A stretch of DNA of 64,000 bases from Pocillopora verrucosa (taxonomy: Eukaryota > Cnidaria > Anthozoa > Scleractinia > Pocilloporidae). This document shows, piece after piece, positions 2,010 to 27,772 of the stretch. The translations under genes and the position numbers were made by a program. Numbering within the stretch: position 1 is the stretch's first letter; the number at the start of each line of letters is the position of its first letter. The notes under the pieces were generated by a model that worked only from the letters and a program-made list of their open reading frames with translations, was not told the DNA's origin and searched no databases. The DNA is taken from assembly GCF_036669915.1 (NCBI RefSeq), contig NC_089325.1, positions 5,601,400-5,665,399 on the forward strand, in the 5' to 3' direction.

Positions 2010-5000
2010 TTAGTCATGTACAGGAAATGTCTTGCAGCTATAATTATTCACACCATTTTTAGGGCTTTTTCTATGATGGTGAAAGTAAAGGCCCACAATT
2101 GGTGATATCACAATACAAACGATGATTCCACATGCCACCACCCATTTAAAGGAGGATTCTTCCGAGGATTTTCTTGGCACTGAAACGCCGGGCTCTAGAA
2201 CAGACATAAAAAAGAAAGAACAACAACAACTCTGATGATTAAACCGTAGTAGTTGGATTAATAGATAATGTAAAAGGGTAGATGGCTAAATGAGTATGAA
2301 GATCCGTTTGAAGGTTAATTAATAGGAATAAAAGTATTCTTACATGTTGGATGGTAACTGATAAAGTGTTTGAACTTGTAATATGTGAAATCACTTGCAG
2401 TCTCAGCTCAGGCTACCGGTCCTGAAAAGGGGTCGGTGGGTTTGTAGAGTACATACATACATACATATACTTTATTTATGCTCGAAATTCACAGTGTAGC
2501 TGTAGAGCTAATATCTTCTAGACTTGTGGGAAATATTTATTGTTAAGATGATAAAAAGCTACTAAAGAAAATAAGTTTCTTCCGTAATTCTCGTGTAATT
2601 TACCTACAGGCTTACTGGTGCAAAAATACTGTAACTTAGAGGGGGCAAACCAAAAAATACGAACATTACCTTCCGATGTATCTAGAGATCCTGTACATGT
2701 ACTTGTTGCTCTCGTAACTGTGGAGACATCTGTCTGTTGTGGAATAGCGGTTTCTAGTGGACCTGTGTATAATAGTTTATGCAAAATCAACTTTAATATC
2801 TGGCAGTGTTAAAACTTCGGAAATACAATTGGTGGAGTAAAGAAGTTTAAAGGAGTCGAGAACATAGAATCAGTTCAACAGCTAGACCCCAGATCTCCGC
2901 ACCCGACACACGTTATCTTCTAAACTGTGCTCTTCCTTGTGGTCTTCAATTATTTCTTCTTTTTTCCGAACAGTATGTTAAAAAAATGTCTTACCACCCC
3001 TATGACGCAGCGGCGGTTTATTGACGTTGGTTACCTCAATTCTCGACAGATCAGGAATGGAACAAAATTGTCTAGATCAATCATCCAGTGACTAAATGTA
3101 ATGTTTGTCCATTCACGAAGGTAACAGAGCTCGTGTAGTATAACAGTTTTAATTGTATTTATGAAAAAGAAATAACAACAATCTGCAATCACCGCAAAAG
3201 GTATTATACTCGCAATTCGTAGTGATCTTGGAAGTACTTTTGACGATTTCTCCTGATAATCCAGTGCGGTCTTGCGATTTCAGGGACTCTTCCGATAAAG
3301 GAACGACAACTTTGATCCCGACTGAACAAAAAAATTTCCCTTCAACCTTATCAATTGTTGCCACTATTGAAGATACTTTCATATACCTCTTTTCTGCGGA
3401 CCCCGTCGTGGAACCCACAAATGAACCATAATCACTGTAATCTGAAATACAATTTTAGGTCAGAACGAATATTCTCTGTGCTGTCTTGAACGATACTACT
3501 TACCTCTGGACTCAACTTGAAGCTGGACCGAGTCGGTCAACGGGGTATTCTGAAGTCCGTATTCTACCACTATTCCATACGTCTTGCCATCTTCAAGTTT
3601 TACATTGTAAAGTTCAAACACTGCGACAGAGGATGTCAAATTTCCTGCCCAACCCACGGAGGACTTATATGAAGACCTTGTTGAGGCAAAACCACTCGAG
3701 TTGACAGCTATCAACTTTGTTTTCAGGAAGCCAGGACTCTTCCAAATACCAAACACAACCTCAAAAAGATCATTCTTTAGATCTCCTGAATTGTAGTGCC
3801 ACCTAAATGACACAGTCTCGCCAATAGGGACGTTTATGAACCTTTTTGGAGCAGAGATCATACTTGGATAAACTATAGCATGAATGGAAACTGGAATAGA
3901 CATGATAAGGCAAAAGTCATTATTGAACGTGGATGTAGGGGGGGGGGGGAGTCGGAGAAAAGAATGAAAAATCCTCCTCTCCTTAACCCTGGTGATAAAT
4001 GATGGCTGGTCCTTAACGTTTAAGAAGTCATAAAGGACTTATAAGGTCCAATAACGCTGGGCCTATTTTTTACTGAAAATATATTCTCTTGATTCTTGAG
4101 AATCCACCATAATATCGGTAAGTTTCACTCTCAAGAGAAGGCCTTGCGGGTTTTCTTATTCTTTTCTTCTGTCTCTTAATGATTCCACACCTTTCACAGA
4201 CAGCTCAGTGGCTGACATAACATACTTCATAGGTTGACTAGCACTGTGTCGTACAGGTAACAGACACTCCGTCAAGAAGCAACCTTTAGATGAATTCACA
4301 TCCTTAAGGAAATTCACTTCCTTAAGGAAGTGAACTTATTTCCTTAAGGAAGTCTTGAAAGTACTCTTTTAACTCTCATTTAAAAACAGTTCGAGAAACT
4401 GTAGCTCTCAATGTATTAGTCATATCAATTTTTTTGCGGTAAAAGCCTATTATAATGATTTACTTTGGTATGATGGGACACCAAACAGATACGACTGAGC
4501 CACAAATGTAGCGAGGATGGTTACGGAGAGTGAAATTTATTTCGTAACTGATTTCCATGCATGATCCTTCTTTTTGACGCAATCTTGCTCAGAGGTCTAC
4601 AGTCACGTCTTCTGTTCAGTTGAAGATCTGCCAAATCCTCAAATTTCCAAATTAACGCAGTTACTCGATTCAAATCACTCCGTACATTAGCTCAACTGCA
4701 ACGAGGTTACCGTGGTCCGTCAAGATATTGCCTGTGATATATTTAACCTCTTAAATCATAGTTTCAGTTCCGCTTTTTCTCAGAAATGATATTACCAAAG
4801 GGGATCAGTTTCTGAGAAACGGATGCATTTTAACTTAAAGAAACAAATGATTCCAAAATTTCATTTTGAAGACTTCACCCCGATTGCATCAACATAGATA
4901 ACGGAATCGAATTTCCTGAAGCGTGGATACCTACAATCAAGAAACACAACAGTAGACCGTTACGACAACAGACCGCCGAGGGAACAACTTGGAGTCAGAC

Positions 5001-6360
5001 CTCTTGGAAAATCAGAACTCATCGAAACAATGCTGTTCGAAATTCACTAATCACATGATGATCGCCGTGATACAAATGATAACGCGTGGACCCCATCGCC
5101 TGATGAAGACTAGCAGAAAGCAGTCGAAAGGTCGTGATCTACATCTCAAGTGACTTCATCGTGAGACAAACGATTAAACAGTTTTTTATGACTTACAACC
5201 ACGATGAGCAGCCAACCTCTTTTAAAATATATTGTGTTGAACTGTTTGGGTTAACTGGCTTGAGCAACTCAAGCAAGTGAGAGGCCCCAGGAGTCTGTTC
5301 AGGAACTTTACTTAGTCTCCGAGACTTTGTCTCTCTTCTACTAATTCAGCCCCAAATACCCGCTCTTAACTACTTTGTCGGTAAGCATGTTTGGGCTTAC
5401 GGACAACTGACCATGGCAAAGAAAATATAAACATATTTTTAGAACACTAACCAAAACAATCTCACAAGACATTCGAAAGAACAACAAAGTACTTAGCAAC
5501 GATCAATCTTCGAGAACAAGAGAGAGTTAAAACCTAAACAAAACTCCCTGCCTAGGACTCTAAGGAAGGTCAAGGACAAATCCAAACACGACTCGCGATG
5601 ACGATTATCGTACGATTATTAAGCCCTACTACAACGATCAAGGACACAACTCTCAAAGGGTAAAAATAAATATGTGGCCTTGCAGCACGTGACAAACCAA
5701 GACTCGCACAAGGATTTCAAGATAATCTAACAAACCTAGCACTTAGTTAGAACAATTTTAGTATAGCTCATAACAATTGTCTCGAAATCTTGAAGAACGG
5801 TGTCACCAGTTTGCCACACACTATGTAGTAGCAACTGTAAAGTTAAAATTGAAAATATGGCACTTAAATATGAATAATTCATCCCATATTGAACTAATTT
5901 GAATATTGTCTAGAAAGGCGCGCCGTGCCTTCAATTGTCCCGTGTGAGCATATTTCCTCTGCATATTATTCGCTTAGTTTCACTTCTTAACGATCGACTT
6001 CCGCTTCGCAATTCTTCTGAAGTGTGATATACACTAATGCTCCGAAGTTCGCATTTATTATCATATTTCGTCGGTAAAAAGACATCGTCAATCTTAAATG
6101 TCATTTCAGCATTTTGCGTAAGGCTTTTGGTCTGCTTATTGATAAAACGCGGTTTGAAAAATACTTGAAATATAGCATTCTTCTTCTGTTCTTCAGGTTT
6201 CTGACCGACGATCGTTTTGGACACCAAGGTAGGACTGTTAATTGACCGACATAAAATCATGTCCAAGAGCTCATTAACTCCTACGCGAAGAACTGTTTGG
6301 CTTACCTGTAACGAAGTGAATCACAAGATGACAAATCCAAAGTATCGAAGGTTTCTTCAT
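2010..6360 (-). CDS. Kinase-less Ig-like membrane receptor, paralogue of the receptor tyrosine kinase at 17.6-27.8 kb
   Basis: Proposed exons (minus strand): 6306-6360 signal peptide (MKKPSILWICHLVIHFVT), 3504-3890 Ig-like domain, 3238-3441, 2670-2762 Thr/Ser-rich stalk, and 2010-2194 membrane exon with stop. All junctions are GT/AG and all four introns are phase 1. The joined frame is open for 307 residues. The Ig-like exon is about 85% identical to the first Ig-like exon of the plus-strand kinase gene and lacks the usual cysteine pair. The last exon has a helix (WVVACGIIVCIVISPIVGLY) followed by only about 28 cytoplasmic residues, with no kinase. The 3238 donor (AGTACTT) is weak, so that exon end is the least certain. 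A second signal exon lies at 7817-7868. Domain architecture is seen; a decoy or co-receptor role is inference. Confidence 0.65.
2994..3061 (-). pseudogene. Relic of the second Ig exon in the minus-strand receptor
   Basis: Reverse-complement sequence reading IPDLSRIEVTNVNKPPLR matches the start of the I-set Ig exon of the kinase gene ([16 protein letters not shown] at 18319). The splice acceptor AG is replaced (ttgttcCATT versus tttgcagCCATG), and after about 20 codons homology stops and the frame closes. The exon is therefore dead here. Confidence 0.65.
3891..6305. other. Intron region with repeat debris
   Basis: No coding exon recognised. It contains a run of twelve G near 3940, an inverted copy (about 3990-4165) of sequence at 10130-10310, three copies of the palindrome TTCCTTAAGGAA between 4300 and 4350, and a stretch (about 4850-5200) with a phrase CCTGATGAAGACTAGCAG that resembles tails of degraded retroelements. 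The last point is weak. Confidence 0.4.
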
Positions 6361-7099: not shown

Positions 7100-7950
7100 C
7101 TAATAAGCGACATTTCCTAATAGGTTGCGGTGATACATTAGCTCCGAGTGGCTATGTTGTTTACGATAAAGCTTTCCTTTCTCACGCATACGAAATGTAA
7201 AGCCTTGAATGTGTTCTGAGGCTATTATTTGTTTTGATGTCTTTAAAGTAATTCTAGCACGTTTCTTTTGCTTTTTTACGGTGTATTTCGATAGAAACTT
7301 TCGACTGAAAATGATGAACAATACCAGACGGCGTTTCTGAGACCGCGTATGGCGACAGTCGCTTTCCACTTTCTTTGATAATTCTCATTACTCACCTGTT
7401 TTCGCGTCTCCATATCAAACTTTGCCTATTGTTATGGCTTAATCTGGGAAACTGACACGTTTCGAACATGAAAGGTGCTTTGCTGTTAGTTTCGCTCTCG
7501 CTACTTCCGCCTCACAGCAACTTACATCTATTTTGACCAAATTACCGCATTCTCCTTTTACTACAGTTTCCCGAAATTTGCCTGCAATTTGTATCATCTT
7601 TTGTGTCTAAGAGGGGGCATTGTAAAATTCATTATGACGAGCTTCCTTTAAGATATTGAGCCACTCAATTCGCAGTCCACTACTTCGAGTTTTGTATTTT
7701 TCACTTTCCTCGTAAGAATATTAGCCAAATGTTCGGTTATTCTAAAGCAACGTGAAGAAGACAACATTTTCAAAAACATCTTCAACATCATAACATCAAA
7801 CCCACGTCAATCTTACCTGTGAGGCACAGAACAACCACACAAAGGATCGAAGGTGGAAATGCTTTCATAGCCAAGATAAACAAATGCTGCTCTGCTTTTG
7901 ATGTGTCTGGGTAATTCAAGCTTAGTCGTACACTTCTTTAGAATCTGCGC
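7100..7950. repeat. Duplicated flank X1 with alternative signal exon
   Basis: Similar to 12900-13550 (X2): shared landmarks are a TTTGTGTCTAAG...GGGGG phrase, the CTTACCTGTGAGGCAC splice-site region and the GATAAAC..ATGCTGCTCTGCTTT stretch. Divergence is substantial, so the duplication is old. X1 carries the intact first exon listed separately; X2 carries a broken one. Confidence 0.6.
7817..7868 (-). other. Alternative first exon with signal peptide for the minus-strand receptor
   Basis: Reads ATG then 16 further codons (MKAFPPSILCVVVLCLT) and ends ACAG/GTAAG in phase 1, which is exactly the phase the Ig-like exon at 3890 needs. The peptide is a good secretory signal: Lys near the start, then a run of Val/Leu/Cys. 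It is related to the first exon at 6306-6360 (shared P-S-I-L core). Either could start the receptor, giving two promoters, or it may be the start of a lost neighbour gene. Confidence 0.5.
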
Positions 7951-8054
7951 GAAATGGTTCGAAAACGAGCATACAACGAAATTTGGCTCGAAAACATTTC
8001 CCAGAAAAATAGCGTTCAAAACTTCCGTTGTTTTTTAAAAACCATTGGCAGAAA

Positions 8055-9861: not shown

Positions 9862-12725
9862 ATGCGAGCTCCGCTTTTAGGCTTGCCTAAATCTATATAT
9901 TATTCTATTGTGCTCATGAAATTGATATCATTGAAAGACGTGCGGGCCATGTGTATATTCTATTGTACTTATAAGGTGATATCACTGAAAGACGTGCAGG
10001 CCATGTGCATCGACAAGAACAAATTTATTTTCTTTTTGACGGAGTGTCTGCCATCTGCACGACACAGTGCTATTCAACGCAGGAAGTATGTTATGGCCAG
10101 CTATTGAATAGTCTATGAAAGGTGGGCAAACCAAAGTAAAAGGGGACAACCACAAGGCCTTACGTTGAGTAATTTTTGAGTGAAACTTACCGATATCATG
10201 GTGGATTCTAAACAATCAAGAGAATATATTGCAGGAAAATATAGGCCCAGGGTCGATAAGTCCCTTATCACTTCTTTGCCATAAAACGTTGACTCTTGCA
10301 CGTGTGGAAGACTTGACTTGGATTCCCTCAGAAAAGAAAAAGGGAAGAGCGTATTTAATATCCATGAGAAAGCTTCCATGTCTGGAGGATGAACCTTGAT
10401 CATTTCCATTTTAGGAAACTGATACAGTAAAGCTACATAGAAAACTTTGTTTTTTCACTGCAGTTCGGAAAGTGAAATAGGAACTGCATCTCCTGACCCA
10501 GTTGACCAGCTCGTCACAGATTTTTGTGTGTTAAGTCATGTTCCCATATCACTGGAACACTGTAAAAGGAAAATGGTAGCAGCTTGAAGGTTGTAATTTC
10601 CTTTTTTGAAGCGGCCTTGCTGCCAGACAGTGTGTTACTTTCACTTTACCGAATTTGGAACTTGACCCAATGCAAATATCGAAGAGCAAAACACTGCTTC
10701 AGTTTACTGATTCAAAGTCATGACCAATGATTTCCGTCACAATTCTAAGAAAAATGTAAACAAATTAACCTTTGGGTCAACATGGCTAAGAGGGTATACC
10801 AAAATAACCGGATCGAACGGCTGACTGACGTTCTGCGGAAATGTAAACGAGAAACCGTCTAAAGTCCTTTTTTTTTCCTCGAAACATGGTTGCTTTCCTT
10901 TCTGCCCACTTATACCTGCTCCATTGGCGATCATATATGCTTAGGGATATGTTTGAAGACGTTAAAACAACACTTTAAGAGTGTGGATAAGCTACCACTT
11001 CCTTGCTTATCAAGTTTATATCCGACTTATCGACCGTTTGAGCTAAATGCTCGGTAACAAAGAGTGACTGTTTTTGTCGGAGAATCTGAACTTGCACCAA
11101 GGAGCACCCGATAAACTCACTGACGGCTGAATGAACAAAATGTACCGATGGCCGAAAGAAGTCCTTTTTGTCTTTTGTCTTTTGTCTTTTTGCAGTAACA
11201 GGTAAGCGTAGGTGTATGATATAGTAGCTAATAGTTTGTATTTATTCATTAAGAGTTAAGGAAATTAATTCGTTTCAAAGCGACCTCACCCGAAAATCAC
11301 GAGGTTTCGATCTGTAGTTAAGCTATCCAATCTATGTAATCTAATATTTGCAATTTTGTTCACTATTAATTGAATAACAGGTTCCTCAAGCAGTCAGCAC
11401 AAGAACACTTAATACTTGTAAAAGGGAATGTATTTAGTAAGTTCGAGGCGGATTTTTCGCACTGCATCTAGCCATCAAAAGCAGCTTCCTAATTTGTGTA
11501 CATGAAATTCAGTAAATCGAAATGTAGATGCAAGTATGCCGAATCAGTATTTAGAGCAGGAGAGGGAAATTATCAACAATAACGACATATTTAGGTATAT
11601 AATGCATTATCTTTCAAAGAGTCGTGAATAGCAAATAACAAGAAAGGGAATGCCAAAATGTCATCTTCATGCATTCACTTTACTTCCCTTTACAACATGT
11701 TATCTAATAGATAAGTAACGTGAAAAGGCAAACTTATCAGGTATCAGACTAGCAGATGATATATCAAGTAACATGAATTTAGCTAAACTTAGCTTATTCA
11801 CAAGAAAATGTATAACAACCAGAAGACAGAATGTCCACTGAATGAGATCTCTTGACGTGAATTTACCCCCTGACTTAGGCCTTCAACCACTTCAGGGAAT
11901 CCTGAAGGCGTTGAGATTCAAAGGACTATAATTGGAGAAAAGAGCTTAAAATTAATTAAATAATAGTGGTTTCGTGATGCTTTGAGCAACTGAGGAAGGC
12001 GAGAGCGTTCGAAAACTCCCGCGAAAGCTGGGGTCTCAAGATTTTGAAAGCGGTATTTTTAAGACAGTGCCGCTGTTTACCTTGTAATAAGCTTTTCGTG
12101 AAATATCAGATTACGAATTAAGTGCTCTTCCGCTACATTTATTTTTAAATTGCATGTTGTGTCTATACCGTTTGAATCAAAACATTTCTGTTAGGACAAA
12201 TAGATATTTAGTACAAGCATTTTGCTGTATGGAAATATTATTTCTGAACATCCGTTCGACTAACTAAGTGAAAGTGACCTTTCGGTACAAAATTCAGTAA
12301 ACGAAGAAAATTATGTCGTGACTGATCCATGTTCCCTGCAAATTTCCTGGCTTTACAACAGAAAGATGGCTTTCAAACTTGACACAATTTTCCTATCTTA
12401 TAGCCAAGAAAGGCAACAAAAAGATCCGAAATATAGCTTTAGTTCACCTTAAACTGAACCTCTTCATTTCTAGGAAATCTGGAGTCAGTCAAGCGTTACT
12501 ACTTAGCAATATTGATAAAATTTCGCACTTATCCTTTTCCATTTTCTTATGGATCGAAAATAACTAAAATAACTTGGGCAAATAATAGTATTTGAAAATA
12601 TTTTATGCTTCTACGCACTACAAAGGTGGTTCATATGAACGTATAATGCATCTTTCGTCGGGCAACAGATAACGCACGTTTTAAAATGATATCTTGTTGT
12701 AAGAAGGAAAGAGGTACGGTTATAT
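9862..12725. repeat. Duplicated block Y1
   Basis: About 2.8 kb that recurs, diverged, at 14240-16900 (Y2) with an offset of about 4.02-4.1 kb. Shared landmarks include GATTTTTGTGTGTTAAGTCATG, ATATCACTGGAACACTGTAAAA, AAAATGCACCGATGGCCGAAAGAAG-like phrases and a GTTCATATGAACG stretch at the end. No open frame is conserved between the copies, so I read it as non-coding flank or intron, not a gene. Confidence 0.65.
9899..10013 (+). repeat. Two-copy 57-bp tandem repeat
   Basis: The segment from TATTCTATTGTGCTCAT through GACGTGCGGGCCATGTG is repeated once with an offset of 57 bases (second copy TATTCTATTGTACTTAT ... GACGTGCAGGCCATGTG). Confidence 0.7.
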
Positions 12726-12899
12726 CAGCAGCATTTATGCGACACTCAAAATTTTCTAGGAATCTGAACCTCATTATATTCGTCTGCAGTGATCCAGTCG
12801 CTTCAGGTATATCAATTGTTTACAATAGCGCTTTCTTGGAATTAATACATACGAAATTAAAATCATTGACTGTATTCAGAAACCAGAATCTGTTTTGGT

Positions 12900-13550
12900 T
12901 CTTGTAGAGTACTTCGAAAACATTTATATCGCCCTTTTACGGTGTACTAAAAAAGAAACTATTGGCCGAAAATATAAAACAATAATAGAAGGGGTGTTTG
13001 CTTCTGCATGAAGCGACATTCGCTTTAGGATTCCTTCGCTAAAGCCATTTAATTTACACATCTGGTTTACTGGCAAACTGGCGTCGTATTCAAAGCGAAA
13101 AAGGTGCCGTGTTATGCCCTTCACGTTCACTAGGTCGTTTGTGTCTAAGGGGGGGGATTTTAAATTTCAGTTTAACTAAGTCTTTTAAGAATATTGAATC
13201 TCTAGCTCCGCAATCAACTTAAGAATATCAAAAACTGTAGGTTTTGTTTTTTACAATTTCCATGTAAAAATGTTCGCCGCCAAAATGCTCGGTTATTATA
13301 AAGTATGATGTAGGGTGGATAATATTTTCAATATCGTTCAAATTCTCAACGCAACAACGACAGAAAAAAACTTACCTGTGAGGCACTGAATCACAACGTC
13401 AAAGGATCGAAAGTTTAAATGCTTTCATCGTTACGATAAACACATGCTGCTCTGCTTTGTATATCCTTGGGTATTCAAGCTTAGTCGTTCCTTCTCCAGA
13501 AACTAAGCCAAAAAAAACTCGAAAATGCACATAGCCAACAGCAACCTTAT
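12900..13550. repeat. Duplicated flank X2
   Basis: Second copy of the 7100-7950 block, lying directly after Y1, so the order is X1-Y1-X2-Y2. Contains the broken first exon at 13376-13428. Confidence 0.55.
13376..13428 (-). pseudogene. Broken copy of the receptor signal-peptide exon
   Basis: Begins MKAFKLSIL like the exon at 7817-7868 and keeps the CTCACAG/GTAAG donor, but codon 10 is TGA and the exon is one base longer (53 versus 52), which also shifts the phase. It cannot start a working receptor mRNA. Confidence 0.65.
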
Positions 13551-14239: not shown

Positions 14240-16900
14240 GAAGTGTGTTTAAAGAAATCTTTACTGGGATTTGCCGATGCTTACTCCTGAATTTTGCTGA
14301 AATTGACGGTTATAATATTATACTGCCCAATATTATTGATGCCAGTAAAACACATGCGGGTCATGTGCATCGATCGGTAAGAAAAAATCCTCGAAGAAGT
14401 TTCATTGTTAAAAAAATGAACCGTGATCATTGCCTTGTTAGGAAACTGATACAGTTGTTTACGAAACTATGCTTATTCACTCAGGCCGGAAACTGAAATC
14501 AGGACTGCTTCCCCTTATACAATTGACCTGCTTGTTATATAAAGATTTTTGTGTGTTAAGTCATGTTTCCATATCACTGGAACACTGTAAAAAGAAGATG
14601 GTGGCAGCTTGAAGGCTGTAACTTCCTTTTATTGAGTGGCTTTGCTGCTAGACAGTGTGTTACTTTCACTTTACTAAATTTTGAACTGAAGCCAATGCAA
14701 ATATCATACAGCAAAACAATGTAAAACACTCCTTCAGTTGACTGATTCAAAGGCGTGACCAACGATTTCCGTCACAATTCTAAGAAAAATATGATAGTCT
14801 GAGAACAAATATAAATCTTTACGTCAATATGGCTTAGAGGGTATACTAAAATAACCCGGTCGAATGGCTAATTGACTTTCTGCTGAAATGTAAACGAGAC
14901 AAAAGTTCATAGAACCGCCTCGAGTCGTTCTTCTTTTCCTCGAAACACTCTACCCACTCACTTCTGCTCCATTTTCGATCATGTTCGCCAAGGTATATGC
15001 TTCAAGACGTCAAAACAACACTTGAACAGTTTAGATAAGGCATTACTTCCTTGCTTATCAAGTATATCTCAGACTTATTGACCGTTTAAGCTAAGAGCTC
15101 GGTAACAAAGAGTAACTGTTTGTGCCGGATAATCAAGACTTGCACCAAGAAGCACCCGATGAACTAACTGACGGCTGCATGAACAAAATGCACCGATGGC
15201 CGAAAGAAGTCCTTTTTGTCTCCTGTATTTTTGCAGCAACAGGTATGCGTAAGTGTATGATATAGTAGCCTAGTTTGCATTCATTCAATGGAATTAATTT
15301 GTTTATTGAAAGCGACCTCATTACCAAAATCATGTGGTTTCGATCTGTAGTCAAGCTATCCCAACTATGCAATTTGATATTTTCAATTTTGTGTACCATT
15401 AACCGATAACAAGTTCCTCAAGCATTCAACACAAGAGCAATTCCTAATTGTAAAGTATTTAGTAAGGTCCAAGCGCATTTTTCACACTGCATCTAGCCAT
15501 CAAGTGCAGCTTCCTCTTTCACTTTGTATACATGAAATTCAGTAAATCGAAATGTAAATGCAAGTATGCCGAAGCAGTATTTAGGACAGGAGAGGGAAAT
15601 TATCAACAAAAAAATCAACAACAACATATTTAAGTGCATAATGCAGTATCTTTCAAAGAGTCGTCGATAACAAATAACCAGAAAAGGAAGTGTCGTGTGT
15701 TATCTTCCTGCATTCGCGCGTAATTAATCCGACTCATCATAAGGAGTCCTTTACACTTTACTTTCCTTAACAACAACATGTTATCTGGTTCATAAGTAAC
15801 GTGAATAGGTAAACTTATCAGGTATCAGCCTAGCAGATAATATATCAAGAAACATGACTCTAGTTGAACTTAGCTTATTCACAAGAAAAAGTATAACAAC
15901 AAGAGGACAGAATGTGCATTAAATGAGATATCTTGAGGTGAATTAAGCCTCTGACTCAGGCCTCCAACCACATCGGGGAATCCTGGCAAAGGAGCTGAGA
16001 ATCAAAGGACTATAACCCGAGAAAAAGGCTTGAAATTAATCGACGAATAGTGGTTTTATGATGCTTTGAGCAACTGAGGAGAGCGAGAGCATTCGCAAAC
16101 CCCCGCGAAAGCTGGGGTCCCGAGATTTTGAAAGCGGAGTTTCGAGTTTCTACACAGTCTAGTGCCACTGCTTACCATGTAATGAGCTTGTCGTGAGATG
16201 TCAGATTACGAATTAAGTGCTCTTCCGCTCCATAATGTTTAAATTGTATGTTGTGACTATACCGTTTGAATCAAAACATTTCTGTTTAGACAAATAGATA
16301 TTTAGTAAAAGCATTTTGCTGTATGGAAATATTATGTGTGAACATCCGTTTACTAAGTGAAAGTGACCTTTGGGTACAAAATTCAGTAAACAAAGAAAGT
16401 TATGTCGACTGGTCCATGTTCCCGACAAATTTCCTAGCTTTACAACAGAAAGGTGGTTTTCAAACTTGAAACCTTTTTTTATTTTATAACTAAGCAAGGT
16501 ATCCAACGGATGCGAAATAGCTTAAGTTCACCCTGAACTTCACCTCTTCATTTCTAGGAAATCGGGAGTCAATCGAGCATTACTACTCAGAAATGTTGAT
16601 AGAATTGCGCACTTATCACTTTCCATTTCCTTATGGATCGATGGTCGTTTTATACTCAAGACGTATTATTCCTCTAAAAGAACTTGGGGAAATAATAGTA
16701 TTTGCAAATATGTCATGCTTCTACAGAGTAGAAAGGTAGTTCATCTGAACGCATAATGCGGCTCTTTGAAGGAGAGACCTGCATTACGCGTTTAATACAT
16801 CTTGAAGATGCAATACAAGGTTAGTCCATATGAACGCATAATGAATCTCTTTGTTTAAAGGCGGGCAAAGCACGTTTTAAAATGAGGTCGTGTATAATTA
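14240..16900. repeat. Duplicated block Y2
   Basis: Second copy of the 9862-12725 block, in the same orientation. It ends shortly before the first recognised exon of the kinase gene, so it is likely upstream or intronic DNA of that gene. Confidence 0.65.
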
Positions 16901-17633: not shown

Positions 17634-20600
17634 GATCCATTCAAGCTATAGTTTATCCAAGTATAATCTCTGCTCCAGAAAAGCCAACAAAAGCCTTCAC
17701 CGGCCACACTGTGTCATTAAAGTGGCATTACAATTCAGGAGATCTAAAGAATGATCTTTTCGAAGTGGTGTTTGGTATTTGGAAGAGTCCTGGCTTCCTG
17801 AAAACAAAGTTGATAGCTGTCAACTCAACTGGTTTTGCCTCAACGAGGTCTTCATATAAGTCATCTGTGGGTTGGGCAGGAAATTTGACATCCTCTATCG
17901 CAGTGTTTGAACTTTACAATGTAAAACTAAAAGATAGCAAGAAGTATGGAATTGTGGTGGAATATGGTCTCCAGCATACCCCGTTGACCGACACAGTTCA
18001 GCTTCAAGTTAGTAAGTAATATCGTTGAAGACAACTCGGAGTATGTTGGCTAACTCAAAATGATACTTTTGGTTGCTGTCATTATGGTTCATCTGTAGGT
18101 TATAAGACGGAGTCCGCTGAAAAGAGGTACATGCATGTCTCTTCAATGAAGGCACCAATTGATAAGGTTAGAGGGTCATTGTTTTGTTCTGTCGGGATCA
18201 AAGTTAGAGTTCCTTGACCGGAGGGGTCTCTGAATTATCAAAATAAATCGATAAAGGTTATTTCTAGTTACATTTAGTTACAGTACGATTGATCCAGATA
18301 AATTTGTTTGCAGCCATGCCTGATCTACCGAGAATCACGAACGTCAGTAAACCGGCGCCGCTCAGGAAAGGACAGAACGTGAACCTTACATGTATTGCCC
18401 AAGGCTTGTCTCCTGTTCAAGTCATGTGGAAAAGAAATGACAAAGTATTAGTCAGCGGTACTTCTAAAGCCATATTGACCCTAAGAAATATTACAGCTGA
18501 GGACTGCGGCGATTACGTTTCTGTCGCTAAAAACACCGCCGGAGAAGATACTAGGACTGTTATCCTACTAGGTAAATGGTTTCCCATACGCTTGCCAGAC
18601 GAAGTTTCTTAAGGTGATTCCTCAATAAAAAAAATTATCGCACAATTTTTTTAAACTTTAGATAAGTCACCGTGCTTGTTTAGGAGATATATGCGTCAGG
18701 TACTGGCACTAATCACACGCGTCATTTCACAGGTTTATGGTATATATGGTGCAGCTGGAAGGAAGGGTTTTCAAAGTAACACGTAAAAAAAAAAAAAGAT
18801 AGGTAGAAATTCTCAAGCGTATGGAACAATTTGGTTCATAATTTGTGAGAAAATCACGCAAATTTAAACGATATTGACTCAAAACGTTCCACGAGTCGTT
18901 CCTTTCGAGTTCATGATTTGTATTGGGCTTCGAGCACGCTTTTAGCTTTATCTTTTTTCCGTTCGAAGTTTTTTTTTTAATTTCCCTAATTTAAAGGGGA
19001 TAATTTTTTCATCAAAATTATGCAATAAAAATATAGGTCACCTTCCTCATTCAAGAGCTGAAGACCATCGTACCTCTTTAAATATACCGTGTTCTCGGAA
19101 TGCGCGCGCGCTCATTCCCCTAATTACATGATTCTTATGCGCAATACAGGATGCGCAGTGCAATACTGAGGAATCACCTTAGGATGAAGCTCCGAGCGTT
19201 AGCCCTTCGTATTTCCCCTGGAATTCCTCTTAAAAAACTAATTTTCCTGCTTGAAACAGTACTTCCGGAAAGCCCAACTATACTGAATTCAGACAAAATA
19301 GTGACCAGTCCCAACTGGACGCTACGATGGTCAGCGGTTGAAAGTGAAGGAGAGCTGCAGATGACGTATACAGTTTGGCAAAAACGTGATAGTGAAGAAT
19401 CATGGCAACTGGAAAATGTTACAAGAAACATATTTCACTTTGGACTTGAGGATAATACATCTTACTCGTTCGTGGTGAAAGCTTGGAACAAATGTGGAGA
19501 CAGTATGTTGGACAGAGACAAAATGCTGAACATATCCACCGACTTTGAAAACAAAGTTTCACAAGGATATCGCGTCATATCTCGCGAAACAGTTCCAACA
19601 GAAAACATGGTTCCGACAGGTAAGAAAATGGAAAAAAAAAATCATCATTACTGCCCTATATGTTTCTTCTTAGTCAGTTTATTTTCGGTCAATAGGTCAC
19701 ATAAAAGTTTGCAGATACATGGTGGCTGCCACTAGACTCAATTTTGCTCATAGGCGTAATTGTGTACCTGAACATTTCATGGTTATCGTAGACAAAATGC
19801 CACATAAACATGAATGACTTTAAAGCCCAGAAATTGGGTTGTTTTGTAGGTGAATGTAGAGAGAGACTACGTGACTGAATCTTCTTGGCCAAGAGCATAA
19901 AGCTGGGGAGGGGAAGAGGCACAAAGTAATGACCGCGGTCTGGCTCAAAACCATGGACATGCCAATCTAGTGAACCAATCAAAACTTCACCCCATTTCCC
20001 AGATGTTAACTGTTTTAAATTTCATTCAACAGAGACTGAGACTACACTGACTCCATTCTCCAGCAGCGGACAAATAGACGTCGATTCCTCGTGGAAAATT
20101 GATTTCATCATTTTAATAGTAGTGGGCATCATAATTTTAATGGTAATTGCAATTGTGGTTCTGCGGAAAAAAATTATCCAAGACAAAGAAGATGGTCAAA
20201 GTAAGTAACTTAAAGCGTGCCCTTTGATTGAATGTTGTAAGAAAAAGCTGTAATACATGTTATAACAGAGCCTATCAGGAAAAAGGATAATTTTGTATTC
20301 ATATGAAATGGAGTCACCTAGAGTTCAAAACAAAAACAGGCAAATTGCCTCTACAGCAAGAAAACACAATTCATTCGAGCCGCCATTGATTTTAGTTTTG
20401 CATCTGATTGGTTGGGGAGTTATTTTAGAACAATCGCAGAGCAGAGTGAAGTAAACCATTACAATTTAGATATTTTTTAAATAATGTATGCCTTATAAAT
20501 CAGTTACAGATAGCTTAACCATCAATGATGAAGAAGACGAGGATAAAGCTTTCAGTCTTTTGAAGACGTGAAATCATGTTAGAGTCAAAGGGAACGAAAA

Positions 20601-23600
20601 ATCTTCGTTAAAAAGAGTAACAATTTTTCTATTTTTCTCTCCAAAACTCCATAGGACCCCAAGATTTGTGGAACGGAGGGTAGGTATTCAGTGGCAAATT
20701 AATCTTTACGAGGCATTATTTCAATATCTTTCTGTCTCTTATCAACGGGAAATTGAAGAAATTTAATCATATTTAATCATATGATATTCAGCTTTCTTTA
20801 ATTTTGTAGATTCGCAGGAAAAAGTTGTAGTTCATCGAGCTAGACATCAAAAAATATATGTATCAAAAATGGTAATAGGACCGTATGGAGTCCAATTCGG
20901 TCTGTAATTATACGAGTGATTAACAAAATCGGACAACCTCGAAGCGGAGTCCGATTGGTTTATCACGAGTATGATTACTGACAGAATTGGACGACAAGAA
21001 ATCCTGTTACCAATTAATCATAACCATTTCAATTTCCGAAAAAAATACACCTTCAACAAATATCTCCAGTTGAGACAGTGTCTTTAGTTAAATATTCCTC
21101 CATTTTGGAAATTGCCTCGTTTTTCTTTGGATAAGTGGTTGTTGCTAAGGTTATTGTGATCAATTCTGTGATTGGTGGATTTAGCTGACTGGACCTTGTA
21201 TGATTAGCTGCTTCAACTGTCCGATTACAGGTGTCCGATTACAGCCAACTATCCGATTACACTGTCCGATTACAACTGTACAAAATGATAAGTGAAAAAT
21301 GAAGCAGTTGATACACCAATCACATTTGAGGAAATTGTAGTGGTTAGGATTAAACACTGTATCAATCAATGTTATTTTTTCATTGATTAGGATAAGTACT
21401 CGAATTGAACCAAAAGTTACGTCCGGTCGATGAGTTGATAAACAACAAAAATATAGATTTTCATTATTTGATATGGATTGCTTTTTCAGGTTAACCACAT
21501 CGTTTTCAAATTTACGAGTAAATTCTGCGTTTGATCAGGTGGGGAAAGAATAACCTGTATGGTCTCTTTTAGTGTATACTGAAACAGCTCAAGGCATTCA
21601 AGGCACGCTCTGATTGGCCACTTAAACGCCGCACATCCCTTGCTATTCACCTCTGAGCAACTCGCAGGGGATTAAGATCCAAAATATCGTAATCGTTAAA
21701 GGAATAAATAAGTTAAGATCATCTTTTTGTGCTATTTAGTATTTACTTAAACAACTATCCACCTCAGAGTCGGTGGTTAACGAGGATAATTACCTCGCCG
21801 CTTCACGACTTGGTAAACGTCCACCACCAGCATTCATCTACCGCAAAACATTCTCTACTACGGTGAATAGTTATAAGCTACCGTTGGTTTAATCCAAAGA
21901 TTGTTTCACTATTACTATTTCCAGTTGTTCTCGTTGCCACAAAAAGGTCGAATGCTTCATGATAGTTTGGTTTAGTCACCTGAGTTGATAATGCGAATTA
22001 GCCACCATGAAGAGATTAAGGTCACTTTTGTTGGAATGGCATCCTGAAATTCAGTTCATGCCAAGAACAAAAACCGATTCATACATTGATCGACTCACCA
22101 CAAGTACCACCCAGTCCTGAAAAATTGAAGAATAAGAATTGCCTTACTGAAATATTCTCTTTTACCCTTGACGTAACCTCATCGCCTCCAGAGACCTAAG
22201 TATCTAACCTCTGACAAAATCAATTTATTGAATGATTTGTTTGCAGGCTCATGAGAGTTCTACAGAAACAGAACCAGTGACGACAGTGGTGACTTCACTG
22301 GGACCTTCACAATCCTCGCTGACGAAAGAAAAACCAGTATCAGCAATAGTGGCTAACACTGAGGAAGGAACAGGAGAGACGCCCGAGATGAGCTCCGTTG
22401 CTGCTGCATGCTCCTCTGGTCAGGAGGTCATGTCCTTAACGACGTTTTCCTCACGTGAAAATTATGAGAGTTCTTCAGAAAGAGAACCAGTGACGACAGT
22501 GTTGACTTCACTGGGTCTTTCACAATCCTCGTTGACGAGAGAACAACCAGTATCAGCAATAGTGGCCAACACTGGGGAAGAAACAAGAGAGAGACCTGAG
22601 ATGAGCTCCATTGCTGCTGCATGCTCATGTGGTCAGCAGGTCATGTCTTTTACGACGTGTTCTTCACGTGAAAATTATGAGGCGTTGCACAACTCCACTG
22701 AAGTGAACGCCCAAGTTGCAGCAGCTCCAAATGCAGGGAATGAAAACATTGTCCAAGTTCAAGAGGAAACAGTTCGACGTCCTGACACGTTCAGAGAGAA
22801 CAAACCTCCAAATAACACAACTCAAGGAGTGAATCATTCGGAAGATTACCTGCAACCGGTGGAGCACTTACACTTACAAGCTGCGTTTCAAAACGGAAGT
22901 AGCTCCCGATGTTGTCGTGGAAAGATACAAACCTTGCCTCAAGGTCGTCCTGTACCTAAGCCCAGAGGAAAATTGTCCACGTTTGCAGGAATGACGTCAA
23001 ATTCGCGCAGGCAAGGGGTTCAACAACAAGCAGATGTCGAACGAGTTAACCAATCAAGGTTCTGCACTCCTCATCCAAGAGTTCTACAAGGTGAACACAG
23101 TTATCTGAATGATAGATGTGCAGCAACCCCGTATGAGAGCCCAAGTTATCCACAATCAGTTTTACCTTCTACTTCCAGGAGGGAGTCACCATACACGAAA
23201 GTGCAGAACAACACCAACTGGGAAGTGCCCGGCAAACGCTTGAGACTATTTAAAAGGATCGGCGGTGGAACATTCGGTCAAGTGTGGGAAGGTGCTGTAT
23301 TGGATGTGCGTAATACTCAAGGCTGGTCTATTGCAGCTGTTAAAATGCTAAAGGGTACGTGCTACTGCTAACAAAATATAAAAATGCCTATAAATCCGTC
23401 CTGACTATCGACAGCTTTTAAGGCGAAAGGACGGAGCACTAAATCTAATACCTCATATAATTATCTCAGAGGTGTTTGCATGCACTGCTAAAAATCTTAG
23501 ATTCGTAAATGATATTTTCTTTGAGATAACTAATCTAGGACTGGGAAACATCACATAATCATGCAGCTTCTAATTTCGCTATCTCTTACACACACAAAAA

Positions 23601-26600
23601 ACACGTTATTATTTAAAACCAAAGAGGTAATGTTACATTAAAAGTGCTTAAAATTTAAGATTCATCTTCGTTCTCTAATGAGTGAGGAATTAGTAGCATG
23701 TGCTGCTGGATCACCAGTAACAAGAATTGATAAAGGCACATTGTAATGCAAGCAGTACTTCTTCAAAAAGAAGGAAAGAGTTTTGTGTCGTATCAATAAG
23801 TTATTGAGGAAGTCGCAACTCAATCAGAAAAACTCTTCATTTTTGTGTAAGGATAAGCTACGTAGTAAAAGCCTCAAAACAAAAACTTTGAAAAGAAAAA
23901 TTCTTTGGACCAAGTTTTCTGAAGGAGCGAATGAACAAGATTAAGTTAGAAATACTGTAACTAAAGTTCTCGTGACATTCGCTGTTGCAGAAAATTCCTC
24001 GAAGTCGGATCGAATGGATTTGTTGTCAGAGCTGGACTTGTTGAAGAAACTTAAACCCCATCCTAACGTGATACAATTGTTGGGCTGCTTGACTAAAGAC
24101 ATACTCCGATGTAAAGGAGGGCGTGAATTTAGTGAGTCGGATTATTTCTATCCTATATGCGAGAAGTAAAGATATAGTCGGGAAGGGAAAAGTCTGTCTT
24201 TGTTATATCAAAACTGAAAAACATGCACCCTGAAGAGATTTGATTTCTTTGTTTGCTATTGTTGCTTGTTTGTATGTTTGTTTGTTGGTTTTTTCATAAT
24301 CACACCCCGATTGCGTTCTTCGACGGGACGAGGAGACTGGGACAGTCGCTTTTACTTCAGAAATTGTTGTTTCAAAAACCAGAGCTGATCGGAAATAAAA
24401 AAATAAATTGTATTAGCGGCTAAATGCAGTTATTTGATGGCTAGAGTAGGAAAATAATCGATCTTTCTCTGCGTCAGAATGCCATTGTATAACTTCGACT
24501 CCAAGGATTCATTTTCTTTGCATATTCAGGGCCGCCTCTTGTTATTCTGGAGTTTGTCCCTCATGGTGATCTCCTTGGATATCTAAAGAAAAGTAGAGGC
24601 GAGACAGATGACTACTACGACGTTGAATGCGCAGAAACTTCATTGAAAATACCAACAGGACAACTTTACAAATTCGCTTGTGATATTGCACGGGGAATGG
24701 CGTTCATATCTGCTCATCAGGTGTGGTATTTCACTTAATCTGTTCCATTTTCATCACACGTGATATATTTAACAATTGCTCAGCGATATATTTAACGATT
24801 AAATATCTAGCCACGGCCACTAAGGTGAAAAGTTGTGTAAGTATATACTAAAATACTTAGATAACATAGCACGAAAAGATGATTTTATCTAATTTATTCC
24901 TGCAACGATTACGATATTTTCGGGCTCAAATCCCGTGCGAGTTGTTCAGAGGTGAATAGCAAAGGATATTTGGAGATTGAATAGCAAATAAGAGGGCGTC
25001 TTCAACACTATCCACTGTTTAGTATATACTAAACTCGAGTGTACACTTCGTCCATATGCGATATTTCAATTTTTTTATATATCCAGCTTTCATACTAACA
25101 GACATTTTATTCTCGTGCTAAGAACGCTTGAGAGGAAACTAACTAAACATGGACAAACACAAAGTTAAGAATTAAGAATAAGAGGTGCAAGTCTTTGTCA
25201 AAATTAAAAATACAACATTTCAAACTGAATTGAGAAAACCTTCGTGAAATTCAGTTCTCAAGGAATGACGATAATTCAAAGCGATAGTGTTGAGAAATTT
25301 ACTACACGAGGTTAAACACTGGGCGAAATATTATTTATCAAATTGTTTGTTCACTCGTAGTTCGTTCACCGAGACTTAGCAGCGAGGAACGTGTTGGTTG
25401 GCGAGGGTCTGCGCTGTAAAATCACTGACTTTGGAATGGCAAGAGATCTTGGCAAAGATAAAATTTATGTCAGGAGGTCGAATGTAAGTAAGCATGTACC
25501 CACTTACAGGTACGATGAGTGCGTACTGCTCCCCCCAACCCCTCCTTTCCACGACCTTTCAAATTCGTTACTTCTCAGACTTGATCACATTGATCCTAGT
25601 ATCTCAAACTTTTGGAACTTAGAAATTTATTGACAACTGAACTTACAGAACACTCATTCTGGCTCTATACCGAAAGTGATTAAATGTTCATTGCGTTATT
25701 TCATAGGGAGTTGTACCAGTGAAGTGGATGGCAGTTGAATCACTAACAAAACAAGTTTTTACCACAGAAAGTGATGTGTAAGTAGATTGATGAGCTTGAA
25801 GTAAAAGTGATAACACTTTCCCAAAGGAATATTAACTCAGCGCCCTTTTTAAGAATTCAATGTCTCTTTAGCGTGAAATCAAATCTTCATGTTTCCCCTC
25901 CGATGTTTCCTGCTGAACAGTAACCTGATCATGTAAGAAAGCGAGAAAAGTTTCTTGTATGGGATAGATTTTTCGATGGTCTACATTACAAGAGACTCTT
26001 CGCAAACCAAAAATGGTGATAATCATCTGAGACAGATAGCGGTAACATAATATAAATATAATTTTTTTTCTTTTTGTCTTTCCTTTTTTTTCAGGTGGAG
26101 TTATGGCATCGTCCTACATGAGATATTCACACTCGGTAAATGAAATTTTTTCAGATTTTTGGGAGACTTGGGGTTATTTGGACTCCAATTTCAAACGTCG
26201 TCATATTTTATTTTCGGAGTAAAAACCGTGAGATGGCGGAGAAAGCCTGAGGAGAACACGATATCAGCCTAACTAAGTCACTTCTTGTCGAGGAGGCCTG
26301 ACAATCATCCGTGTGCTGATTATAGACCGTTAAACTGGAATTTCAAGTGCGATCGTGGGGGGCTGCTATCGAACCCAAACAGAAAGTATCATTGTGATCA
26401 TTCGGGCGTGGGTAGTCCTGGAAAGAACAATACGAGCGAAAGTCATCATCAGAGGTCTCTGTGACGGAGATTCGAGGATGTTGATAAGTCAACCATTGTC
26501 ACTGACAACAATCCTTTTCAGAACTACTATAATCCGGACGTGTAGACTACACAATCAACTGCTGATTTCAAACCTTTCACTCTACTGAAAAGAAAATTTG

Positions 26601-27772
26601 CAAGTCTGTTATTACTCAGTACTATCTTTTCTACAGAATCTTTTTCTTCAGCTTTCTGGGAGCTGACATCTTTAAGTTCTTCGCAAGCATACAAACTATT
26701 ATTTTTTTTTCTGAGTCAAATACGCAGTGTTTTTTATCTTTGCAGGGGGGAACCCTTACGATGGAATGAGCGGACAAGAAGTATTTACATACGTGTCGCA
26801 TGGTCATAAATTGCGAAGGTCGTCAGGCGTGAGCCGAGAATTGTACGTAGAATCACGTTCCAGCTAGATTCACACTTATGAATATGCCTCACTTATGAAT
26901 AGGCCTATTCATAAGTGAGGCCCAGAACCCTTTTGGATTAATAATAATTAATAAATAATTATAACGGCTGATCAGAAGAAAGAAAATGTCTCAAAGAGCC
27001 AATCAGACCTTAAATTAAAAACGAACAAACTGCCCAAAGCGCGGGAAAACGCGGGTGATCAATTCGTGATTGCTTTCAGTTTTGTATTTGATTGGTTGAG
27101 AGAGAGGCGTAAGTTTTCTGAACCAATCAAATGGCAAAGTAAAGCAAAACCAATACAATCCGGATAACTTTCGACAATCAGTTGAAAATTGCTGCATTAA
27201 AAACTATAGTTGAGTAAGTGCGTTTCATACATGGAAATAATGCTCCAAAAGGTTCTACTGACCTAAGGAATGTATTTTTATTTTACCTTCCGCTCGTATT
27301 ATTGAGGCTCATTGCCACACATGTCATTAAAACACCGGATTTTTGACCCAACAGTTCAAACCGTCATACTATTTGTTTTTTTTAACAAGTCGCTGGTTAT
27401 ATCGAGTTTTGGTGAGTAAAGACTGACTCATGACTTTACAGATATCTTTAATTGGTTACGTCTGTGTTTACATTGTAAATCACAAATTCCCCTGAATTTA
27501 TATCCGTTTTGACAGTTGGGTTTTTGGTTTTACCCCGCGAAAACTGATCATTAAAGCAGAAAAAGGCAATGCTTCTACATTCATTCGGACAATTTGTTAT
27601 CTTAACAACATGATCACTTGATTCCTACAGATATAAATTGATGCTTCAGTGCTGGGACCAAGAGCCATCTAGGCGACCGACATTCGAATCAATTACGTCG
27701 TGGATGGAAACTTTAACGCATCCTCACTGCACAGAAAGTAGGAATACCTCCCAAATTATAAGCTGGGCGTAA
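17634..27772 (+). CDS. Receptor tyrosine kinase with Ig-like, I-set Ig and FN3 ectodomain (FGFR/VEGFR-like kinase)
   Basis: Exons: 17634-18011, 18314-18571, 19260-19619, 20033-20200, 20810-20871, 22247-23354, 23991-24110, 24530-24720, 25361-25483, 25707-25777, 26095-26135, 26746-26842, 27631-27772. All are GT/AG and the phases agree throughout, giving about 1,039 residues without the missing signal exon. Domains: cysteine-free Ig-like; I-set Ig (LTC...W...DCGDY); FN3; membrane helix ([20 protein letters not shown]); about 350-residue juxtamembrane; kinase. Kinase motifs: GGGTFGQV loop, [27 protein letters not shown] (AVE for APE), [26 protein letters not shown]. The C-terminal tail is only about 15 residues. 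The juxtamembrane region has ENYE sites, a YLND (Grb2-type YxN) and PVPKPR. The exact FGFR/VEGFR orthology and ligand are unknown; the first exon was not found. Confidence 0.85.
18104..18250 (+). pseudogene. Relic exon inside the kinase gene (homologue of the 3238-3441 exon)
   Basis: Sequence [17 protein letters not shown]...[19 protein letters not shown] matches the left gene's exon 3238-3441, but reaches an in-frame TGA right after KVRVP, and the acceptor position has lost its AG. Skipping it keeps the frame because the flanking exons are both phase 1, so the kinase gene stays open. Confidence 0.7.
20335..20480. repeat. Dispersed repeat, family 2 (partial)
   Basis: Shares TTTTAGTTTTGCATCTGATTGGTTG and a following AGAGTGAAGTAAA phrase with 26985-27200. 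Both lie in introns of the kinase gene. Confidence 0.55.
20504..20571 (+). other. Candidate alternative last exon: would give a kinase-less isoform
   Basis: After an acceptor (AAATCAG) and in the phase supplied by the membrane exon, this reads [22 protein letters not shown] followed by TGA. Splicing here would end the receptor with a 22-residue acidic tail just inside the membrane. The alternative is splicing straight to 20810, which leads to the kinase. No transcript evidence is available. Confidence 0.3.
21218..21278 (+). repeat. Short tandem array of a TGTCCGATTACA unit
   Basis: Four imperfect copies of TGTCCGATTACA within about 60 bases, next to further TCCGATT/AATCGGA words from 20910. 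It appears to be part of a larger intronic repeat (about 20880-21290). Confidence 0.6.
21575..21760 (-). repeat. Short element with AGTATATACTAAA-like ends, minus copy
   Basis: The reverse complement matches 24838-25032: shared CGATTACGATATTTT, GCGAGTTGCTCAGAGGTG and AATAGCAA words, with AGTAWAYACTAAA-type words at both ends. Two copies in opposite orientation in one gene's introns. Confidence 0.65.
22253..22678 (+). repeat. Two-copy 71-codon in-frame repeat in the juxtamembrane exon
   Basis: The coding repeat starts [17 protein letters not shown] and again [17 protein letters not shown] 213 bases later; each copy ends SSRENYE. Both are Ser/Thr-rich and each ends at a candidate phosphotyrosine site, so the duplication doubled the site. 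The copies differ at scattered positions, so this is not a very recent event. Confidence 0.85.
24838..25032 (+). repeat. Short element with AGTATATACTAAA ends, plus copy
   Basis: Intronic. Contains a B-box-like GGGCTCAAATCCCGT phrase and AGTATATACT words at both ends; see the inverted copy at 21575-21760. Confidence 0.65.
26887..26920. repeat. Perfect 34-bp palindrome
   Basis: Half-site CCTCACTTATGAATAGG followed with no spacer by its exact reverse complement, inside a kinase-gene intron. A half copy (TTCACACTTATGAATATG) lies just before it. Confidence 0.9.
26985..27200. repeat. Dispersed repeat, family 2
   Basis: Contains AAGCGCGGGAAAACGCGGG and TTTGATTGGTTGAGAGAG followed by a CAATCCGGATAACTTTCGACA phrase. 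Fuller copy of the element seen at 20335-20480; matches a family I remember from coral genomes. Confidence 0.5.

What the first reader, a model, noticed from the sequence alone, without database searches (positions are those of the whole stretch)
2010..27772. Head-to-head pair: a receptor tyrosine kinase and its kinase-less twin
The two genes share the same cysteine-free Ig-like exon at about 85% identity with matching phase-1 borders, but only the right one continues into FN3 and kinase exons. The left one ends 28 residues after its membrane helix. Kinase-less receptor paralogues can act as decoys or co-receptors for the same ligand. A pair made by inverted duplication in a cnidarian would be a compact example.
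Basis: partly seen in the sequence, partly recalled or inferred. Interest (0 to 1): 0.75.

Follow-up and report, generated by a model that had tools for sequence, protein, structure and literature searches.

The report
Kinase-less receptor array beside receptor kinases
The left gene looks real in outline, but it is not a lone twin: it is one of about ten kinase-less surface-receptor genes in one cluster that carry the same outermost domain as neighbouring kinase receptors, which suggests they tune or compete with those kinases.

Summary
The left (3504-3890, minus) and right (17634-18011, plus) Ig-like exons are 84% identical in protein, both phase 1-1, and only the right gene continues into Ig2, FN3-like, membrane and kinase exons. 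The window's genome, searched here, puts the pair at the end of a ~360-kb cluster. The left exon belongs to 10 kinase-less genes found there ("T", all minus: Ig1 - stalk - membrane helix - short tail), beside 5 kinase loci ("K") and an older kinase-less type ("D", Ig1-Ig2-helix). T genes look like mosaics: in the three T copies compared, the 5' exon and intron match a D gene (75-78% DNA); in the two compared, a ~700-bp Ig1 cassette matches K (80-82%) in inverted orientation. A dead stub of the next Ig exon is in 10 of 10. The left gene's candidate signal exons lie at 6306-6360 and 7817-7868, the right gene's at 15179-15242. The T Ig1 core shows purifying selection (pN/pS 0.46, P = 0.0009 against neutrality, post hoc split); the helix exon does not. 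Most likely role (inferred): membrane-held competitor or partner of the kinase receptors. Expression and ligand are unknown.

The parts
7817..7868 (-). Left gene, candidate signal-peptide exon A (MKAFPPSILCVVVLCLT|G, donor GTAAGA, phase 1)
   Evidence: similar exon with ATG and GT donor upstream of kinase-less copy 5421613; a frame-broken copy near 13.4 kb of the window
6306..6360 (-). Left gene, candidate signal-peptide exon B (MKKPSILWICHLVIHFVT|G, donor GTAAGC, phase 1)
   Evidence: similar exons upstream of 5470162 and of the D gene 5282570; the copy at 5421613 has lost its ATG and donor
3504..3890 (-). Left gene Ig1 exon, V-like, no cysteines, phase 1-1
   Evidence: AG and GT borders kept in 10 of 10 kinase-less copies, frame open in 9 of 10 (5455258 has a TAA)
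3238..3441 (-).
   Evidence: intron in the right gene; stop or frame break in 7 of 9 other kinase-less copies; against: its acceptor AG is kept in 8 of 10 copies
3007..3101 (-). Stub of the second Ig exon; splice acceptor deleted
   Evidence: 74% to 18268-18361; stub found in 10 of 10 kinase-less copies, acceptor AG absent in all 10
2670..2762 (-). Left gene stalk exon (Thr/Ser rich), phase 1-1
   Evidence: detected in 9 of 10 kinase-less copies (not in 5584827 at the cut-offs used)
2010..2194 (-). Left gene last exon: membrane helix and short tail with stop
   Evidence: 10 loci on C14 (5565666 frame-shifted), one on C2 with two stops, and two weak rows elsewhere; tail length varies
15179..15242 (+). 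Right gene candidate signal-peptide exon (MNKMHRWPKEVLFVSCIFAAT|G, donor GTATGC; a second phase-1 donor GTAAGT six bases on)
   Evidence: same exon at 91% in the kinase gene at 5.29 Mb; a frame-broken copy at 11131 in the window; not found at the kinase locus at 5.37 Mb, and the region before 5540000 was not read
17634..18011 (+). Right gene Ig1 exon
18314..18571 (+). Right gene Ig2 exon (I-set with cysteines)
   Evidence: of 86 listed matches only 4 reach 50% identity, at the four plus-strand kinase loci of the cluster
19260..19619 (+). Right gene FN3-like exon
   Evidence: fn3 24.4 bits, cut-off 25
20033..20200 (+). Right gene membrane-helix exon
22266..23354 (+). Right gene juxtamembrane exon (two 71-residue repeats) and start of the kinase domain
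   Evidence: acceptor choice inferred (an AG at this place is also in the gene at 5.29 Mb); an unseen small exon before it is not excluded
23991..27772 (+). Right gene remaining kinase exons (23991-24110, 24530-24720, 25361-25483, 25707-25777, 26095-26135, 26746-26846, 27631-27772)
   Evidence: end 24110 read by eye; [11 protein letters not shown] and the ATP-site lysine are present in the translation

Best explanation
The left gene is one member of a tandem family (10 copies found) of kinase-less, single-Ig, single-pass surface proteins ('T' genes) in a ~360-kb cluster that also holds five receptor tyrosine kinase loci ('K') and an older kinase-less type ('D'). Origin (inferred from sequence): the ancestral layout was a D gene and a K gene head to head. 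An Ig1 cassette of K (end of the upstream intron, Ig1 exon, next intron, first 22-48 bases of the Ig2 exon) was copied in inverted orientation into, or converted with, the divergent minus-strand gene. The Ig2 exon died by loss of its acceptor, and Ig1 was joined to a stalk and membrane exon of unknown origin. The chimera then multiplied. Working (inferred, not shown): T proteins display nearly the same V-like Ig1 as the kinase receptors but have no kinase and only a short, unconserved tail, so they most likely bind the same partner, or the kinase receptors themselves, through Ig1. They would then act as membrane-held competitors or co-receptors that set the threshold of kinase signalling.
For: Genome search: 14 Ig1 exons at 80% or more in the cluster: 10 go with the T membrane exon, 4 lie in three kinase loci. 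Matches to the right gene's Ig2 at 50% or more only at kinase loci (4 of 86 listed); no kinase exon beside T genes in the stretches read or in the capped list. One branch parts T from K (98, unrooted). Ig2 stub with dead acceptor in 10 of 10 T copies. Mosaic: the left gene's 5' region matches D 5282570 at 75.5% over 988 columns, its Ig1 cassette matches K1 at 81.6% over 658; outside the 5' region the left gene shares only a 50-base piece of Ig1 with D. Two further T copies agree with D, one with K; the other seven were not compared this way. Constraint: left against right exon dN/dS 0.36; codons 31-123 have 7 nonsynonymous and 16 synonymous changes, P = 0.003 even if only one copy were neutral; five T pairs: pN/pS 0.56 (P = 0.004), core 0.46 (P = 0.0009). 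Ig1 profile against PDB: 59 of the 60 rows shown (of 398) are named antibodies, nanobodies or sodium-channel beta subunits, all V-type by recall; best E 0.005.
Against: No expression data. The T membrane exon is not distinguishable from neutral (pN/pS 0.78, P = 0.31) and tails differ between copies. Several T copies are damaged: TAA in Ig1 of 5455258, frame shift in the helix of 5565666, lost start or donor in some signal exons. Over the whole exon the left-right comparison does not exclude one neutral copy (P = 0.26); the core/N-terminal split was made after looking. Left against single T copies, dN/dS ranges from 0.26 to 1.06. Codons 1-30 of Ig1 evolve as if unconstrained. Signal exons similar to A or B and intact were found for 4 of 10 T copies; the wider hydrophobicity scan reaches 9 of 10 together with these, but its opposite-strand control gave 1 and 2 candidates against 3 and 3. 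The edges of the mosaic and the source of stalk and membrane exons were not found. Shared ligand is pure inference.
Confidence: 0.6

Rival explanations
1. The T array is largely a decaying by-product: tandem copies of a gene fragment with chance open frames, little or no protein function.
For: Helix exon not shown to be constrained and tails unconserved; damaged copies; whole-exon left-right test does not exclude one neutral copy (P = 0.26); intact signal exons similar to A or B for only 4 of 10 copies.
Against: Ig1 open in 9 of 10 T copies with splice sites intact in 10 of 10; pN/pS 0.56 (P = 0.004) over the exon and 0.46 (P = 0.0009) in the core among T pairs.
Confidence: 0.2
2. T and D proteins are recognition molecules in their own right (homophilic or allorecognition-like, as the Alr family in Hydractinia), and the kinases are the signalling arm of the same polymorphic locus.
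For: Clustered, multiplying, partly pseudogenised Ig-superfamily single-pass genes, as described for Alr (PMC11067881, passages read); N-terminal segment of Ig1 is fast (pN/pS about 1 among T copies).
Against: No polymorphism data; no sequence link to Alr tested; fast segment is compatible with plain relaxation.
Confidence: 0.2
3. One reading: one inverted duplication produced this kinase-less gene from the right gene.
For: Shared 658-column block in inverted orientation.
Against: Ten related T genes parted from K by one branch; 5' end of T matches the D type; the left exon is nearer to other T genes (up to 95%) than to the right gene (84%).
Confidence: 0.05

Closest known systems
FGFRL1 (kinase-less FGF receptor; PMC2806250, abstract read)
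   Same: Kinase-less single-pass relative of an Ig-type receptor tyrosine kinase (in part recalled)
   Different: [quoted passage not shown] T genes are a multi-copy array, keep only one cysteine-free Ig, and have a short unconserved tail
Paired immune receptors, e.g. CD300A/CD300C (PMC12447643, abstract read)
   Same: Similar ectodomains with different signalling halves, with evidence of gene conversion preserving ectodomain similarity
   Different: Here the signalling partner is a receptor tyrosine kinase; exchange is between divergently transcribed neighbours; no ITIM or ITAM system was tested; ligand unknown
Hydractinia Alr allorecognition complex (PMC11067881, passages read)
   Same: Clusters of single-pass Ig-superfamily genes and pseudogenes in a cnidarian
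   Different: No kinase genes are mentioned in the passages read; sequence relationship not tested; allelic polymorphism unknown here
RET / Tie2 / FGFR kinases
   Same: Kinase domain of the right gene: best single-stretch PDB score is RET (273 bits), then Tie2 (237) and FGFR1/2 (230) (the top row, 295 bits in two stretches, is a chain labelled EGF receptor)
   Different: Ectodomain is V-like Ig1 + I-set Ig2 + FN3-like, not a RET ectodomain (RET's recalled)

Membership tests
Receptor tyrosine kinase (right gene) | Signal peptide, extracellular domains, one membrane helix, tyrosine kinase domain with catalytic motifs | tested here: met
   catalytic motifs read in the translation; exon joins and the signal peptide are predictions
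Kinase-less receptor paralogue (left gene) | Shares ectodomain with a receptor kinase, has a membrane helix and a stop, no kinase downstream | tested here: met
Kinase-less receptor paralogue (left gene) | Expressed protein | not testable with these tools
   no transcript data held
FGFRL1 | Several Ig domains with conserved disulfides | tested here: not met
   left gene has a single Ig-like exon without cysteines
Ig superfamily V-set (Ig1) | V-type Ig fold or profile match | tested here: inconclusive
   no Ig family of Pfam for any of 14 members; PDB profile: V domains at E 0.005 and above, partial matches; AlphaFold model from two sequences poor, pLDDT 39
Paired receptors | Same ligand, opposed signalling | not testable with these tools
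   ligand unknown; only ectodomain similarity shown
Alr allorecognition family | Sequence homology to Alr proteins, high allelic polymorphism | not tested
   no Alr sequence or population data used

The most novel reading that the evidence does not exclude
A cnidarian paired-receptor locus built on a receptor tyrosine kinase: the kinase receptor's outermost V-like Ig cassette was copied in inverted orientation into its divergently transcribed kinase-less neighbour, and the chimera multiplied into at least ten membrane-anchored competitors, giving a fast-changing recognition cluster that tunes kinase signalling.
Probability: 0.35. Interest if true: 0.75.

Novelty: new variant of a known kind. 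Interest (0 to 1): 0.6.

Why it matters
Kinase-less receptor decoys are usually discussed as single genes (recalled). Here the likely intermediate steps can be read in one chromosome: a recurring head-to-head kinase / kinase-less layout, the transfer of one outer-domain cassette between them, the dead stub of the next exon, and the expansion that followed. If the products are made, the cluster gives a tractable test of how a receptor kinase acquires a battery of competitors, and a candidate recognition locus in a cnidarian.

Tried and rejected
Prokaryote and viral collections gave no confirmed relative of Ig1. PDB by single sequence gave nothing meaningful for Ig1; Pfam gave no Ig family. Homology of the left and right membrane exons: weak and biased by hydrophobic composition (4 of 500 DNA shuffles and 1 of 1000 protein shuffles reached the score); not claimed. 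A terminal acidic exon after the right gene's helix (20511-20572) that would give a kinase-less isoform: the block recurs in three kinase genes, but its acceptor and phase differ between them; left open. Paper searches on the subject: the titles and abstract starts listed describe no such cluster; none of those listed papers was read, and the library holds open-licence PubMed Central papers only.
Full report
CHECK OF THE OBSERVATION. The left Ig-like exon is at 3504-3890 (minus) and the right at 17634-18011 (plus). Both start after AG and end before GTAAGT in phase 1. They share 84% of 123 residues within a DNA block of 658 columns at 81.6% that also covers part of the following intron. A second block (3007-3101 against 18268-18361, 74%) is the 5' end of the right gene's Ig2 exon; in the left gene the five bases with the splice acceptor are missing. 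The right gene reads through a candidate signal exon at 15179-15242, Ig1, Ig2 (I-set, 7e-13), an FN3-like exon (24.4 bits, just under Pfam's cut-off of 25), a helix exon, a 1089-base juxtamembrane exon and a complete tyrosine kinase (PF07714, 7e-86). The kinase's best single-stretch PDB match is RET; the first row is a chain labelled EGF receptor that scores in two stretches.

LEFT GENE MODEL. The same stretch is intron in the right gene and has an in-frame stop there; differences fall 8/10/12 on codon positions, little different from even. In the 9 other kinase-less copies, 7 show a stop or frame break in this stretch, and in 2 (5571109, 5588506) the similarity ends at about residue 37 without a displayed stop. 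Against this, the acceptor AG before it is kept in 8 of 10 copies, so an occasional or poison exon is not excluded. All exons are phase 1-1, so skipping it keeps the frame.

THE CLUSTER. The window is C14:5601400-5665399 of a 353-Mb genome. Ig1 has 31 listed matches; 14 at 80% or more lie between 5.29 and 5.62 Mb of C14. Local annotation of 304 kb in two blocks (the window included) plus four stretches of 6-7 kb gives 10 kinase-less 'T' genes, all minus: Ig1 at 5421613, 5455258, 5470162, 5510918, 5523263, 5565666, 5571109, 5584827, 5588506 and 5604919 (the left gene). The stretch 5461400-5561399 was read only in those four pieces. The T helix exon is found at all 10 loci (split by a frame shift at 5565666), at one place on C2 with two stops, and in two weak rows. 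The stalk exon was detected in 9 of 10. Kinase exons listed in the cluster (capped list) sit at five loci: the right gene, 5.291-5.303 Mb, 5.542-5.552 Mb and 5.372-5.381 Mb (all plus), and 5.402-5.407 Mb (minus; a stop-bearing Ig1 lies 8 kb upstream, link not shown). Of 86 listed matches to the right gene's Ig2, the 4 at 50% or more are at the four plus-strand loci. A further kinase-less type, D (Ig1 at 33-40%, an Ig2 confirmed by Pfam in the one tested, a helix read by eye in the two looked at, no kinase found nearby), lies at 5269751, 5282570, 5326401, 5366550 and, broken, around 5344200. A third Ig1 type is at 5276914. Strand and kinase go together: 4 of 5 kinase loci are plus and 16 of 16 kinase-less Ig1 places minus (Fisher P = 0.0008; tandem copies are not independent). 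Each plus kinase locus has a kinase-less minus gene as its nearest upstream Ig1 neighbour; for the locus at 5.29 Mb the two candidate start codons are 1.7 kb apart.

ORIGIN. In a tree of 14 Ig1 exons one branch (bootstrap 98) parts the 10 T copies from the K copies (unrooted). All 10 T copies carry the Ig2 stub, and none keeps the acceptor AG. One D gene, 5282570, was compared with three T genes: the left gene matches at 75.5% over 988 columns around signal exon B and 70.4% over 422 around exon A; T5421613 at 78% and 67%; T5470162 at 77%. The Ig1 cassette of two T genes was compared with the right gene: 79.8 and 81.6%. So T genes are mosaics; that a K cassette moved inverted into a D-like neighbour is the simplest reading, not a shown event. 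The region between the window's two genes holds a second, frame-broken copy of each start exon: 11131 plus (in the duplication 10389-12557 / 14416-16641) and near 13.4 kb minus (in the repeat 7809-7937 / 13368-13495).

CONSTRAINT. Left against right: dN/dS 0.36 over 123 codons, which does not exclude one neutral copy (P = 0.26). In codons 31-123 there are 7 nonsynonymous and 16 synonymous changes (P = 0.003 against one neutral copy). Codons 1-30 show the opposite (16 and 3), and the two parts differ (Fisher P = 0.0007). The split was chosen after seeing the data. Among five T pairs, overall pN/pS is 0.56 (P = 0.004) and the core 0.46 (P = 0.0009); one pair includes the copy with a stop, and one pair (5571109/5588506) shares branches of the tree with two others, so independence is approximate. 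Left against single T copies, dN/dS runs from 0.26 to 1.06. The T helix exon is compatible with neutrality (0.78, P = 0.31). So Ig1 seems kept as a protein module while the tail is free to vary, which fits a tethered binding domain; it also fits an array in which some members are dying.

SIGNAL EXONS OF T GENES. Exons similar to A or B with ATG and GT donor were found upstream of 4 of 10 (5604919, 5588506, 5421613, 5470162); 5510918 has one without ATG and donor. A scan for any hydrophobic phase-1 start exon adds candidates for 5584827, 5571109, 5565666, 5523263 and 5510918, and none for 5455258; the same kind of scan found 1 and 2 candidates on the opposite strands against 3 and 3, so such candidates alone are weak.

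WHAT Ig1 IS. No Ig family of Pfam matches any of 14 aligned members. In a profile search of the PDB, 59 of the 60 rows shown (of 398) are named antibodies, nanobodies or sodium-channel beta subunits; one has an uninformative name; best E 0.005, partial matches. From recalled V-domain motifs, the first cysteine position is tryptophan (W30, invariant in 14 of 14) and the second is not cysteine in T and K. A V-like fold is probable, not proven.

MECHANISM. Shown: a shared Ig1, a predicted helix, a short tail, and no kinase exons found in the T genes. Inferred: surface display and competition with, or pairing to, the kinase receptors. Not known: ligand, expression, polymorphism.

Noticed in passing
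window 30446-53480: Large tandem array: aligned stretches of 0.5-4.8 kb at 88-95% identity carrying repeated MFS-type transporter exons on the minus strand (PF07690 in the one tested); an OHCU decarboxylase exon (PF09349) at 30070-30642 plus.
   Followed up: partly
window 10389-16641: Direct duplication of about 2.2 kb (79-85%) between the two genes that includes the right gene's signal exon; the copy at 11131 is frame-broken.
   Followed up: yes
window 20511-20572 (plus): Acidic block [19 protein letters not shown] followed by a stop, just after the right gene's helix exon; it recurs at 79% and 89% in two other kinase genes. It may be a tail exon giving a kinase-less isoform, or just conserved intron.
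   Followed up: partly
window 22251-22681: Two 213-base in-frame repeats at 89% in the juxtamembrane exon; the kinase gene at 5.29 Mb shows at least three units.
   Followed up: partly
G000 C6, about 6.0-18.2 Mb: Dozens of tyrosine-kinase exon matches and Ig exon matches, suggesting a much larger receptor-kinase expansion on another chromosome.
   Followed up: no
   Followed up: no
L012, C14:5291557 and 5292728: Two Ig1 exons with identical protein 1.17 kb apart in one kinase gene: a recent internal duplication or an assembly artefact.
   Followed up: no
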